Assembly (NCBI GenBank): GCA_003697085.1
Contig: RFFU01000015.1
Location: 1 to 18,753, forward strand
DNA: 18,753 nt
Direction of reading: 5' to 3'
DNA from: Candidatus Hydrogenedentota bacterium
GTDB lineage: Bacteria > UBA8481 > J006
Shown: piece after piece, positions 7,321 to 15,912 of the stretch
How positions within the stretch are numbered: the first letter of the stretch is position 1
Layout of the letters: every line of letters starts with the position of its first letter
Program-made: the position numbers and the translations under genes
The notes under the pieces: generated by a model
Told to the model about the DNA's origin: nothing
What the model saw: the letters and a program-made list of their open reading frames with translations, nothing else
Database searches by the model: none

Positions 7321-8589
7321 TCACCCGAGGGCTGCAGGAAATGCCGAACACAACTCCGCCACCTTCTCGCGAACAGTCGCAATAACGTCCTCGGCCCCGC
7401 CGCTCTCGATCACATCCGCAATCCAGTTTCCGATCAGTTCCAATTGATCCGGACCCATACCGCGCGAGGTCAACGCGGGTGTCCCGATCCGAATTCCGCT
7501 GGTCACCGCGGGTTTCCTCGGGTCCCCCGGAACCGCATTCTTGTTCACCGTGATGCCGGCCGCTTCGAGAAAGGCTTCCGCGTCCCGGCCCGTGACCTTG
7601 CGATCTCGAAGATCGAGGAGGACGAGATGAGAGTCGGTTCCACCGGAAACGAGCCGAAAACCGCGATTCAAGAGAACCTTTGCCAGGGTCCGAGCATTCA
7701 GCAAAACGGTTTCTTGATATTTTCGGAATGATTCCGTCAGAGCCTGGCCGAAACAGACCGCCTTCGCCGCCACAACGTGCATCAGCGGCCCCCCCTGCGT
7801 ACCGGGAAAGACCGCCTTATCGATGGAGCCCGCAAGTTCGTTGCGACAAAGGATGAATCCGGATCGCGGGCCGCGAAGCGTCTTGTGGGTCGTGGAGGTC
7901 ACGACACCGGCGTGTGGCACCGGATTCGGATAGAGCCCGGCCGCGATCAGCCCCGCGTAATGCGCCATATCCGCGACGTGCACCGCGCCGATCTCTTCCG
8001 CGATCTTCCCGATCCGCTCAAAATCGAACCGGCGTGGATAGGCCGAGGCCCCGCTGACGATGATCCGCGGGCGGGCTTCCTTGGCCGAACGTTCGAGCGC
8101 CTCGTAATCAATCAGGCCCGTCTCGGGATCCACTCCGTACGAGACAACCGAGTACGTCTTTCCGGAAAAGTTGACCTTGTGACCGTGAGTGAGATGCCCG
8201 CCTTGGTCGAGCCGCATTCCCATAATGACATCGCCCGGCGAGGCCAGCGCAAAGTAGGCGGCGAGGTTGGCGGAAGATCCGGAATGGGGCTGGACATTGG
8301 CGTGCTCCGCTCCAAAAAGCCGCTTCGCCCGCTCGATCGCCACACGCTCGATCTCGTCCACGAATTCGCACCCGCCGTAATATCTCCGACCCGGATACCC
8401 CTCCGCATACTTGTTCGTCAAGATCGTTCCCATCGCTTCGAGCACGGCACGGCTCGTGAAGTTCTCCGACGCGATCATCTCCAACTGTCCGTTCTGGCGC
8501 GAGGCTTCCCTCCGTATCCAGTCCGATACTTCCGGGTCCGCTTCGACCAAGGGAGCGGTCAAGATGTCGTTTCTCTGCGTCTTCGTCAT
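7321..8589 (-). CDS. glyA: Serine hydroxymethyltransferase
   Basis: This 422-residue PLP enzyme interconverts serine and glycine while moving a one-carbon unit to or from tetrahydrofolate. The family core is clear: [19 protein letters not shown] (37-54), the [14 protein letters not shown] tetrahydrofolate/active-site segment (60-73), [10 protein letters not shown] near 103-112, D207 and H210 (VADMAHYAG), and the PLP-binding lysine K236 in [13 protein letters not shown]. The length is normal for bacterial GlyA. ATG 8589 is chosen because it gives the standard N-terminus and has GGAG eight bases upstream. The frame stays open further 5', but that part overlaps ssnA and is not needed; an ATG at 8700 would add 37 charged residues. 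It sits between ssnA and the sensor kinase gene and is probably co-transcribed with both. Confidence 0.97.
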
Positions 8590-8726
8590 CGGCTCACTCC
8601 ATCCTTTCCTTTCTCCGGCGACCTGCGCCGCTTCTTTTCGTTCTTTCATCTCTCGAACCGATCCGGCAACCTCCGCCTCGGCGCGGTCGGTTTCCGTCAT
8701 TCTATCCGCTGAAATCGAAAAGTGAT

Positions 8727-10091
8727 TCAAAAACGTTCCCAGAGTTCTTGAGCGTGTTCCCGGGCGCGCGCCGCCAATCCCTCCTCGTCGATGTCCAACT
8801 TCAACCGCCCCGATTCCAGCAAGATCTTTCCATCGCAGACGACATGGTAGGCGGTGGAATGGGAAAGGCCGAAGAGGAGATGGCCTCCCAACGAATCCTT
8901 CGACAACGGCGTCGGAGGAAAATAATCCATGACGGCCACATCGGCAAACGCTCCCTCTCGCAATACCCCAACCGGCTTCTCGAAGTACCGGCTCGCCAAA
9001 GCCGGATTTCCCTCGACCAAGAGCGCGACGGATTCTCCCCATCCCTGCCGCGGATCGGCGGCGCGGTGACGCATCAACCATGACGCGGTTCGAAAATCGT
9101 TCCAGACCACGGGACTCATTCCGTCCGTGCCGACTCCGAGCAGAATCCCTTCGGCCGCCAGGTCCACGATCGCGGCGGCGCCGACGGCGTTGTTCATATT
9201 GGACGTCGGCTGGTGCACGACCGCCGTTCCGCTCGACGCGATCATCTCGACCTCCGCGTCCGTGATGTGAATGCAATGCGCCAGAATCGACTTTTCACCG
9301 AGAATCCCGAACTCACGAAGCCGATCGACGGCCCCCTGAAAACCGCGGGAACGGGCGTTCTCGGCATCCGCCACGTCTTCGGCGCAATGAATGTGACAGC
9401 CCGCGCGGAGATAATCGTTCAACTGCCGCGCCCGTTCCAGGGTATCGTCTTCGCAGGTGAACTGCGCGTGCAATCCGATCATTCCGGAAAGTCGCCCCCC
9501 GCCGTGGCCGGTCCGACACATCTCGATAAATCGCTCGTTCTCCGACATCCCCACCTCGGCAACCGTCTGTCCATCCCGATCCGATACCTCGTAACAAAGA
9601 CAGGCCCGCACGCCCGTATCGAGAACCGCTTGGCCGACTTCCTCCAGGCACCCCAACGGGGTCCCTTCGCGATAGAACGGCGAGGCGTGGTGATCGAGGT
9701 ACGTCGTGATCCCGTAGCGGAGCCCCTGCAGAATCGGTATCGCCGCGGAAAGGTAGCAGTCCTCGGGTCCGAGGGCTTTGTCCAACCGCCACCAGAGCCG
9801 TTCGAGAATCTGAACGAAATTTTCCGGAGGGGCATCCTTCAACGCCATCCCGCGGGCGAAGGTCGAGTAGAAATGCATATGGGCGTTAACGATCCCCGGA
9901 AGGATCACGCGCCCGCCGGCATCAAGTGTTTCGAACTCTTCCTTTCTCTCCCCCAACGCTCGATGAAGATCGTCGTACTTCCCGACACTCTCGATTACGT
10001 TGCCATCGATCAGAACTCCCCCCTCCTCGATGACCTCACCGTCCTTCCCAAACGTCACCACACTTCCCGGACCAACCAATAAACGCGCCAT
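8727..10091 (-). CDS. ssnA: SsnA-family metal-dependent aminohydrolase
   Basis: The 454-residue protein belongs to the amidohydrolase superfamily, closest by eye to SsnA. Shared segments include [44 protein letters not shown] and LLFGLSHS. Metal-site residues are visible: H71 and H73 (NAHMHF), H235 (HIHCAED, with E238), H272 (LAHCIH) and D323 (GVGTDGMS). Such enzymes hydrolyse C-N bonds of purine- or guanidine-like substrates. SsnA itself has no firmly established substrate; it is often found near purine or selenium-dependent hydroxylase genes, which are not present here. ATG 10091 is preferred over the in-frame TTG at 10109 and ATG at 10100, because it leaves room for the purine-rich GCGAGGGATGGGAAGA. 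It is the first gene of the five-gene minus-strand unit. Confidence 0.9.
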
Positions 10092-13787: not shown

Positions 13788-13872
13788 AATCGAAGTCCGT
13801 ACGGGAAAGGAGGCGCACATTTAAAAAGCCACAGAGCCACAGAGCACACAGAGAGAACACGGAGAAAAGATG
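13787..13872. repeat. CACAGAG-type repeat, copy 1 of a local duplication
   Basis: The block begins at the last base of the glycosyltransferase stop codon (AAATCG) and runs through CCACAGAGCCACAGAGCAC to AAAAGATG. It aligns over its whole length with 14033-14114. Such CACAGAG/CACGGAG strings are, to my knowledge, frequent intergenic repeats in several uncultured lineages. Confidence 0.75.
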
Positions 13873-14150
13873 TAAGAAAGGAAAAAGCGGGTTTCCCTTT
13901 TTGGCAACGAAAGATCAGCGGGAAAATCTGCTTCTCGCGGCGAAGCGAAGAGAAATGGAGTTTTTGTTCCGGATCTTCTTCGTTTTTCTTCATTTCTTCC
14001 CTCTTTCTATTCCCTCTGTCTCCGTGCGAAGCAAATCGTAACCGGAAAGAGGCACGTCGCATTCGAAGGGCCACCGAGCCACGGAGCACACTGAGAGAAC
14101 AGGGGGAAAAGATGCCCCCGCCTTCTTCGCCACCGGGAAAAAAACGCGCT
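13788..14150. other. Gene-free region between convergent genes
   Basis: This 363-base spacer holds two CACAGAG-type blocks in direct orientation, separated by about 160 bases of A/G-rich then T/C-rich sequence. A pyrimidine-rich stretch near 13976-14025 ends CTCTGTCTCCGTG, which looks like a short inverted piece of the same repeat. No coding potential or clear terminator was seen for either converging gene. Confidence 0.8.
14033..14114. repeat. CACAGAG-type repeat, copy 2 of a local duplication
   Basis: The copy runs from AAATCGTAACCGG through CCACCGAGCCACGGAGCAC to GGGGAAAAGATG and aligns with 13787-13872 with scattered substitutions and small gaps. The flanking AAATCG and the terminal AAAAGATG are shared, so the duplicated unit is larger than the CACAGAG core. 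Confidence 0.75.
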
Positions 14151-15137
14151 TCACTCTCCCGGATGAAATACGGCCAGTTTTTCCTCGATCTCCGTCAAGA
14201 CGACGTCGCCGCGAATCCGCCATTCCCGCTCGGCCCGATAATCACTGCTGCCGGGGAGAAATTTCTGGTACAACCATCGCTGCTCCGGCTGCAGCCTTTT
14301 CCATTCTTCCGGGCTCCGATGCTGGACCTTTCGAGCCCCCAGGCTCTTCGCCAGCGCGATCGGGATTCCGATCGCAAACGGCTCGAAATCCCAACGAAGC
14401 AACGCCGGGCGATAACGGTGAAGTTCGGAAATTTCCTCGGGGGAGGCTTCGCTGAAACAGACCACAGGGACGCCGCCTCGGATCAAGCCACCCCCGGCCC
14501 GCAACCGCCCCTCGTTCCATATCCGCGCAAGGGTATCTCCCGCCGTATGGCCCGAAAGCGGATGGTTCTCGACAAGCGAACGGAAATATTCCTCCGTTCT
14601 CTGCCCCGGCCACGGTCCCGGGCACGAGCGGGTATAGTGCCAGAGGAATTCTCCTTCGGGGCGGCGGAGAGGAGGAAGCGGAGGCGGACTGATTCGCGGA
14701 ATCTCGATCCTCAAATCCATAATTTCGCAACGCCCGGGAAACCGTTCTTCCAAGAACGAGGCCGCCGCCGAATTCTCCCTCGGGCAGACGATGCGTTTCC
14801 CGAGTGACACGGCCTCTTCGAGGCACCGTTCCATGTTTCCGCCGGGCCTGATGTCGAGAACGACGAGAAGGTCGGCCTCGCGGCAACGAAGATGATCCCA
14901 TTCGAAGAGCTCCCTCTTCGACGGACGACGCTCGATATCGGCGCCGATCCAGAGACACTTGCCTCCCGCTTCTTCATACATCCATCCGGCGAAACGATTT
15001 CTTCCGGGATGCGCCTGCACCAGAAGAATCGCACCCGACGGAGCGAAACGCCGCGCCGCTGCCACCGCGGAGCGGAGCCACAAATCCGAAGGACTCCAGA
15101 GGCGCGGGCCACGGGAGAGAAGAAAGGTGATCTTCAT
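14151..15137 (-). CDS. Orphan protein: SLOG-like N-terminal domain plus ART-like C-terminal domain
   Basis: I do not recognise a named family for this 328-residue protein. Residues 1-145 look like a Rossmann/SLOG-type fold: GAILLVQAHPGRNRFAG (35-51), then ADLLVVLDIRPGGNMERCLE (88-107) and GKRIVCPRE (113-121), the spacing expected for a nucleotide-binding GGN loop. After a Pro-rich linker (147-160), residues 163-328 show FLWHYTR (164-170), DTLARIWNEGRLRA (201-214), GGVPVVCFSE (221-230), RWDFEPFAIGI (248-258) and EREWRIRGDVVL (303-314). The order H-Y-T, small-residue strand, late E-x-E-W-R recalls ADP-ribosyltransferase-fold families such as DarT-like proteins; this is inference from layout. 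ATG 15137 has GGAG seven bases upstream, and TAAAAT (15173-15168, minus strand) may be its -10 box. It stands alone between repeat-rich spacers. Confidence 0.6.
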   Translation of the reverse strand: MKITFLLSRGPRLWSPSDLWLRSAVAAARRFAPSGAILLVQAHPGRNRFAGWMYEEAGGKCLWIGADIERRPSKRELFEWDHLRCREADLLVVLDIRPGGNMERCLEEAVSLGKRIVCPRENSAAASFLEERFPGRCEIMDLRIEIPRISPPPLPPLRRPEGEFLWHYTRSCPGPWPGQRTEEYFRSLVENHPLSGHTAGDTLARIWNEGRLRAGGGLIRGGVPVVCFSEASPEEISELHRYRPALLRWDFEPFAIGIPIALAKSLGARKVQHRSPEEWKRLQPEQRWLYQKFLPGSSDYRAEREWRIRGDVVLTEIEEKLAVFHPGE

Positions 15138-15224
15138 CCCAACGCTCCTCGGCCGAGTTCAGCAAACATTTTACGCAAGTCCGATCTCCAAGAAAACCTC
15201 GCCGGGAGGGAGCATAGCGAAATA

Positions 15225-15780: not shown

Positions 15781-15912
15781 TCTCCCTTTTTCCTTTTCCC
15801 TTTTGCCTTTTGCTTTTTGCCTTTCTCATTTTCCGTGTATTCCGTGTGTTCCGTGGTTTCCCCGTTCCGTGTCTTCAGTGGTTTCCCTCCCTTCCGTGGC
15901 CCTCCGTGTTCT
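15781..15912. repeat. CACAGAG/CACGGA-type repeat, reversed, with pyrimidine tract
   Basis: A tract of CTTTT, CCCTTTT and GCTTTTTGCC units (15781-15830) leads into repeated TTCCGTG motifs (TTCCGTGTATTCCGTGTG and on to CCTCCGTGTTCTGCGG). On the minus strand this reads as CACGGAA/CACGGAG strings, the inverse orientation of the 13787 and 14033 repeats. Confidence 0.65.

What the first reader, a model, noticed from the sequence alone, without database searches (positions are those of the whole stretch)
14151..15137. Orphan SLOG-like plus ART-like two-domain protein: candidate nucleotide-sensing effector
The sequence shows a Rossmann-like half with a GGN loop (LDIRPGGNMERCLE), fused through a Pro-rich linker to a half with HYTR, TLxxI, EGRLRA, VVCFSE, RWDFEPFAIGI and EREWRIRGD. 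SLOG domains are known to bind nucleotide-derived ligands, and ART-fold toxins such as DarT use NAD+ with a similarly ordered set of short motifs. The fusion suggests a one-protein sensor-effector that modifies a macromolecule in response to a nucleotide signal. The gene is alone and bounded by repeat-rich spacers, as expected for acquired cargo. The ART reading is inference; the C-terminal half could be an unrelated fold.
Basis: partly seen in the sequence, partly recalled or inferred. Interest (0 to 1): 0.62.

Follow-up and report, generated by a model that had tools for sequence, protein, structure and literature searches.

The report
SLOG sensor fused to AbiGi-like ART-fold domain
A solitary bacterial gene encodes a nucleotide-sensor-type domain joined to a domain with the fold of NAD+-using ADP-ribosyltransferases, and the same unnamed fusion recurs in many bacterial phyla with every putative catalytic residue kept, so it may be a one-protein switch that uses NAD+ when a small nucleotide signal appears.

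Summary
The gene is real: a 328-aa ORF on the minus strand (14151-15137) with an AGGAG ribosome site, conserved as a two-domain protein in 86 of 92 related loci from many phyla (Planctomycetota, Hydrogenedentota, Lindow-, Zixi-, Acidobacteriota and others). Residues 1-144 fold as a SLOG domain (Moco-carrier/DprA/ShosA/LOG; VIA Z 12-13.6). Residues 160-328 modelled alone (pLDDT 92.6) give only modest structural scores, but the top eight and nearly all listed matches are ADP-ribosyltransferases, DarT first (Z 5.9), then Tpt1/KptA. By sequence this half belongs to the AbiGi/DUF2971 superfamily (hhalign 97-99%), not to DarT (0.3%). H167 and T169 are invariant in 93/93 sequences, E303 and E305 in 92/92; Y168 is not conserved. 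There is no constant partner gene, no plasmid or phage-genome match, and no ThsB in this genome. In seven planctomycete loci with SLOG-ART proteins only 31-46% identical, nadA (NAD+ biosynthesis) lies 48-152 bp downstream. Best explanation: a self-contained, SLOG-gated NAD+-dependent effector. Catalysis, ligand and target are inferred. New variant of a known kind.

The parts
14151..15137 (-). gene for the SLOG-ART two-domain protein, 328 aa, stop codon included
   Evidence: homologues
15145..15149 (-). Shine-Dalgarno AGGAG, 7 bases before the ATG
   Evidence: sequence, read on the minus strand
14706..15137 (-). residues 1-144: SLOG (Rossmann-like) domain
   Evidence: model pLDDT 89.4; VIA-align Z 12-13.6 to Moco carrier protein, DprA, ShosA, about 11.8 to LOG
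14832..14849 (-). R97-M102 (RPGGNM), glycine loop of the SLOG domain; R97 and G100 nearly invariant
14658..14705 (-). residues 145-160: proline-rich linker, low confidence in the model
   Evidence: pLDDT dips to 60-74
14154..14657 (-). residues 161-328: ART-fold domain of the AbiGi/DUF2971 superfamily
   Evidence: model pLDDT 92.6; VIA-align best Z 5.9 to DarT; hhalign 97-99% to AbiGi
14631..14639 (-). H167-Y168-T169; H and T invariant in 93 of 93 sequences, Y168 variable
14604..14615 (-). P175-G178 (PWPG), insertion after the H-x-T motif typical of the SLOG-fused subfamily, absent from single-domain relatives
14217..14231 (-). E303-R-E305-W306-R307 (ExEWR); both Glu invariant in 92 of 92 sequences with residues there, candidate catalytic ExE

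Best explanation
A single-gene, self-regulated NAD+-dependent effector. The N-terminal SLOG domain binds a nucleotide-derived small molecule (perhaps an NAD+ or ADP-ribose metabolite) and thereby controls the C-terminal AbiGi-type ART-fold domain, which uses the invariant H-x-T and ExE residues to bind and cleave NAD+ and to transfer ADP-ribose to a macromolecule (or simply to deplete NAD+). Shown here: the gene, the two domains, the SLOG fold, the ART-type fold with conserved H/T/E/E, AbiGi kinship, wide and ancient spread, no constant partner. Inferred: NAD+ use, the ligand, the gating, the target, and the role (stress or phage response, or NAD+ homeostasis).
For: SLOG fold of residues 1-144: VIA-align Z 13.6 (2iz5), 12.7 (DprA), 12.1 (ShosA), about 11.8 (LOG). 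C-terminal domain modelled alone at pLDDT 92.6: the eight best VIA-align rows are DarT (7yk3 Z 5.9, rmsd 4.0, 119 aligned; 7omv 5.6; 7omu 5.2) and Tpt1/KptA; lower rows are cholera/LT A chains, PARPs, Arr and exotoxin A, while the beta-secretases that head the Foldseek list do not appear. H167 and T169 in 93/93, E303 and E305 in 92/92 across very diverged proteins: enzyme-like constraint. The fusion is kept: SLOG profile hit in 86 of 92 loci. AbiGi superfamily by profile: hhalign 97.1% (E 7e-11) for fused members alone, 98.6% with single-domain relatives. NAD+ hint: nadA directly downstream, same strand, 48-152 bp, in seven loci whose SLOG-ART proteins are only 31-46% identical; NUDIX directly upstream in two diverged loci (L037, L136) and a macro-domain gene upstream in one (L024). 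Published parallel: in Thoeris ThsA a SLOG domain activated by cyclic ADP-ribose isomers switches on an NAD+-consuming SIR2 domain (PMC11204291 abstract).
Against: No activity data. C-terminal Z scores are below 8, where shared arrangement alone can occur (note), and Foldseek found nothing significant. No sequence similarity to DarT. Pfam and NCBI label AbiGi an antitoxin. The nadA link is confined to part of the planctomycetes, needs only about 1-3 origins on the tree, and nadA is on another contig in this genome (C129). No recurring signal-producing partner; a ThsB-type TIR occurs in only 3 of 17 carrier genomes and not in this one.
Confidence: 0.5

Rival explanations
1. The C-terminal AbiGi-like domain is a non-catalytic ART-fold regulator (antitoxin or nucleic-acid/ligand-binding module), and the protein is a sensor-regulator rather than an effector.
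For: Pfam/NCBI name the related family AbiGi 'antitoxin'; a plasmid AbiGi lies directly upstream of an AbiGii toxin gene.
Against: Invariance of H167, T169, E303, E305 across 92-93 diverged sequences, and of H and both Glu also in single-domain relatives, is more like an active site; the SLOG-fused genes have no adjacent AbiGii, and none was found in 17 carrier genomes, though that search lacked a positive control.
Confidence: 0.2
2. A housekeeping NAD+-homeostasis or salvage-linked enzyme (not defence): SLOG senses an NAD+-related metabolite and the ART-fold domain acts on NAD+ or on a metabolic protein such as quinolinate synthase.
For: nadA directly downstream in seven diverged planctomycete loci; mostly phylum-coherent tree; chromosomal single copy among ordinary metabolic genes; none in plasmids or phage records.
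Against: Link seen only in part of the planctomycetes; patchy presence (60 of 297 planctomycete-class genomes, 21 of 386 relatives) is unusual for housekeeping.
Confidence: 0.25
3. A Thoeris-like or abortive-infection phage defence effector triggered by a phage-induced nucleotide signal.
For: SLOG-NAD+ effector logic as in ThsA (PMC11204291); AbiGi kinship; single-domain relatives on viral contigs (L148 beside a tail-fibre-like and a small membrane-protein gene) and on plasmids, one near avs4.
Against: No defence-gene neighbours and no ThsB partner; the fused form was not found in plasmids, phage records or viral contigs.
Confidence: 0.25

Closest known systems
AbiGi family (PF10899; PADLOC AbiGi) and DUF2971 (PF11185)
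   Same: Sequence-profile kin of residues about 160-328: same order of motifs (H-x-T, L..IL, VCF, GI.F, PV.Y, ExEWR); hhalign 97-99%
   Different: AbiGi proteins seen here carry no SLOG domain and can pair with AbiGii; here the domain has a PWPG insertion, is fused to SLOG, and has no AbiGii neighbour; P0001 itself does not reach the Pfam cut-off
DarT (PF14487) and the wider ART superfamily (Tpt1/KptA, CT/LT A chain, PARP, Arr)
   Same: Best structural matches of the C-terminal domain; H near the start and Glu near the end of the domain
   Different: No detectable sequence homology to DarT; no adjacent DarG; ExE rather than DarT's single AE motif
ThsA of Thoeris (SIR2-SLOG)
   Same: A SLOG domain and an NAD+-linked effector domain in one chain
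   Different: SLOG is N-terminal here, the effector is ART-fold instead of SIR2, and there is no ThsB neighbour
SLOG proteins: Moco carrier protein, DprA, ShosA, LOG
   Same: Fold of residues 1-144 (Z 12-13.6) and a glycine loop
   Different: Lacks the LOG PGGxGTxxE catalytic motif; lacks DprA's accompanying domains; fused to an ART-fold domain

Membership tests
SLOG superfamily | Rossmann-like SLOG fold | tested here: met
   VIA-align Z 12-13.6, 2.3-3.2 A over 130-137 residues, many SLOG entries
SLOG superfamily | conserved glycine-rich nucleotide loop | tested here: met
   R97 and G100 invariant or nearly so in A2/A7
LOG phosphoribohydrolase (SLOG subfamily) | PGGxGTxxE catalytic motif | tested here: not met
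   RPGGNMERCLE here; no conserved GT or Glu after the loop
Thoeris ThsA | SIR2 NADase domain | tested here: not met
   C-terminal domain is ART-fold/AbiGi-like; no SIR2 hit in P0001
Thoeris ThsA | ThsB TIR partner in the genome | tested here: not met
   none in G000; 3 of 17 carrier genomes
ART superfamily | ART fold | tested here: met
   top eight VIA-align rows are ARTs, DarT first, but Z 5.9 at best
ART superfamily | conserved [H/R] on an early strand and catalytic Glu on a late strand | tested here: met
   H167 in strand 164-168, E305 at the start of strand 305-309; 93/93 and 92/92 conserved
ART superfamily | H and E facing one NAD+ cleft; NAD+ turnover | not testable with these tools
   model coordinates not available to scripts; no biochemistry
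DarT (PF14487) | sequence profile match | tested here: not met
   no Pfam hit; hhalign 0.3%
DarT (PF14487) | adjacent DarG macro antitoxin | tested here: not met
   the own genome's only macro gene is on contig C131, not C34; one macro gene near in 92 loci
AbiGi (PF10899) | Pfam gathering score | tested here: not met
   P0001 no hit; 6 of 36 relatives hit at E up to 0.1
AbiGi superfamily | profile-profile homology | tested here: met
   hhalign 97.1% fused only, 98.6% all
AbiG abortive infection system | AbiGii partner | tested here: inconclusive
   none found in 17 carrier genomes, but no control rang; none among shared neighbours
mobile phage-defence gene | found on phages, plasmids or in defence islands | tested here: not met
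   no fused copy in plasmids, phages or viral contigs; neighbours look like ordinary chromosomal genes

The most novel reading that the evidence does not exclude
The AbiGi/DUF2971 superfamily, labelled 'antitoxin', is in fact a large unrecognised group of NAD+-using ART-fold enzymes, and this branch is a stand-alone, ancient, SLOG-gated ADP-ribosyltransferase or NADase tied in planctomycetes to NAD+ synthesis through a nadA operon: an NAD+ rheostat rather than a toxin-antitoxin pair.
Probability: 0.25. Interest if true: 0.78.

Novelty: new variant of a known kind. Interest (0 to 1): 0.6.

Why it matters
If right, it adds a SLOG-ART architecture beside the SIR2-SLOG effectors, gives the AbiGi/DUF2971 families a testable enzymatic function in place of an 'antitoxin' or 'unknown' label, and provides a single-gene system (no partner needed) in which nucleotide sensing and NAD+ use can be dissected in one polypeptide. 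The nadA linkage makes the question 'defence or NAD+ homeostasis?' directly testable.

Tried and rejected
Single-sequence searches of Pfam, NCBIfam, PADLOC, PHROGs and PDB gave nothing; the KRAB hit (E 0.028) is chance. A profile of the SLOG half found only ubiquitin/creatine-kinase noise in PDB sequences. Foldseek on the C-terminal model gave only beta-secretase noise; VIA-align on the same candidates gave ARTs. The Agrobacterium 6b protein (3aq3, Z 5.1) also appears in that list; I take it to be ART-like from memory and did not test it. The BFVD list for the full model appears to be filled by the N-terminal half. I first suspected a miaB-miaA operon in L028/L030: their neighbours look like membrane-transporter genes, and a miaA-like gene is upstream only in L033. 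Literature searches in the held library found no SLOG-AbiGi/ART fusion and no ART assignment of AbiGi or DUF2971; subscription papers, including the main SLOG survey, are not held, so prior description cannot be excluded.

Full report
What is there. The ORF at 14151-15137 on the minus strand encodes 328 aa and has AGGAG seven bases upstream of its ATG. Its neighbours are ordinary chromosomal genes: a glycosyltransferase-9-like gene on the opposite strand downstream, a VTT-domain membrane protein 0.79 kb upstream, and NAD synthase, SHMT, an amidohydrolase and a histidine kinase farther off. GC does not differ from the surroundings. The spacer repeats are real, but the motif is a low-copy dispersed one, so there is no evidence of cargo boundaries.

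A conserved family. By sequence alone nothing known is hit, but relatives exist: 4 of 60 genomes in a first survey, 39 loci in the GTDB-species collection, 21 of 386 relatives at profile level, and 60 of 297 genomes of the class of a planctomycete carrier, nearly always one copy. In 86 of 92 loci both halves are detected in one frame. Of the six others, L027 and L034 have the SLOG part in a separate upstream ORF, L016 is masked with N, L100 and L138 only just miss the threshold, and L037 is diverged and seems shifted in frame near its end. The tree is mostly phylum-coherent with deep branches, and this window groups with Hydrogenedentes and Lindowbacteria. No fused copy was found in plasmids, phages or viral contigs.

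N-terminal half. The full model has pLDDT 89.4. Residues 1-144 match Moco carrier protein (Z 13.6), DprA (12.7), ShosA (12.1) and LOG (about 11.8): a SLOG domain. S8, W20, D81, R97 and G100 are the conserved residues. The LOG catalytic motif is absent, so ligand binding is more likely than LOG-type hydrolysis (inference).

C-terminal half. Modelled alone (pLDDT 92.6, pTM 0.86), it gave no useful Foldseek hit, but in the structural re-alignment of Foldseek's 616 candidates the best rows are DarT (Z 5.9, 5.6, 5.2) and Tpt1/KptA (5.0-5.5), followed by cholera/LT A subunits, PARPs, Arr and exotoxin A. The Z values are modest; what persuades is that nearly every row is an ART, while the non-ART chains at the head of the Foldseek list drop out. 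By sequence the domain belongs to the AbiGi/DUF2971 superfamily: single-domain relatives L038-L043 include hits to AbiGi (1.2e-7) and DUF2971 (0.0028) in Pfam, hhalign to genuine AbiGi proteins, three of them plasmid-borne, gives 97.1% for the fused subfamily alone and 98.6% with the relatives included, and DarT is not detectable. The H-x-T ... ExE pattern resembles the H/R ... ExE pattern known from ARTs (established knowledge), but placement in a cleft was not measured.

Context as a clue to function. There is no constant partner. The most telling immediate same-strand neighbour is nadA (PF02445, E 7.6e-97): directly downstream, 48-152 bp, in L025, L105, L106, L111, L117, L126 and L131, whose SLOG-ART proteins are only 31-46% identical. 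Six of the seven fall in one clade of ten and L105 elsewhere; the tree needs three changes. Some other upstream genes are shared by three to five of these loci, so part of this is inherited synteny, but only nadA is shared by all seven. A NUDIX gene sits directly upstream in two diverged loci and a macro-domain gene upstream of one. These point to NAD+/ADP-ribose metabolism, but they were noticed after the fact and are lineage-bound; in the window's own genome nadA is on another contig. AbiGii was not found in 17 carrier genomes (no control rang) and ThsB-type TIR only in 3 of 17.

Mechanism. I commit to a SLOG-gated NAD+-dependent effector in one polypeptide. Fold, fusion and conservation are shown; NAD+ use, gating, ligand and target are inferred. 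The nearest working parallel is ThsA, where cyclic ADP-ribose isomers activate a SIR2-SLOG protein that degrades NAD+ (PMC11204291, abstract). It works like that family's logic but is not a member: the effector fold, domain order and missing ThsB all differ. It is not a DarT by sequence, and it is a diverged member of the AbiGi superfamily rather than an AbiGi. Whether its role is defence or NAD+ homeostasis is open; the chromosomal, single-copy, phylum-coherent distribution and the nadA pairs weigh for homeostasis, the AbiGi kinship and the patchiness for defence.

Verdict. A new, widespread, unnamed architecture of known parts: new variant of a known kind.

Noticed in passing
window 13818-13872, 14060-14114, 15831-15887: Direct repeats of the 'CACAGAGCACACAGAGAGAACA' type in the spacer on one side of the gene and a related-looking 23-nt repeat cluster on the other; the first is a low-copy dispersed repeat, at only four places in the genome.
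   Followed up: partly
L025, L105, L106, L111, L117, L126, L131: nadA directly downstream of the SLOG-ART gene in strongly diverged planctomycete loci.
   Followed up: yes
L037 and L136: A NUDIX (ADP-ribose-pyrophosphatase-like) gene ends 1-48 bp before the SLOG-ART frame in two diverged loci.
   Followed up: partly
L024 6408-6953: Macro-domain gene about 0.3 kb upstream of the SLOG-ART gene, same strand; a possible ADP-ribose eraser.
   Followed up: partly
L148 2944-3546: Single-domain relative (200 aa, no SLOG) on a viral contig between a tail-fibre-like and a small membrane-protein gene: a possible phage-carried accessory gene.
   Followed up: no
L079 3794-5859: Plasmid AbiGi gene followed 2 bp later by an AbiGii gene in Niallia; a useful reference locus for testing whether AbiGi is an enzyme.
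   Followed up: no
L080 3815-8375: AbiGi gene on an E. coli plasmid near avs4 (AVAST type 4), with an IS2 transposase between.
   Followed up: no
L027 and L034: SLOG and ART parts lie in separate ORFs; possible decay, frameshift error or a natural split.
   Followed up: no
window 7324-9276, minus strand: 651-aa ORF whose SHMT match covers only residues 244-619; the true start is probably farther downstream.
   Followed up: no
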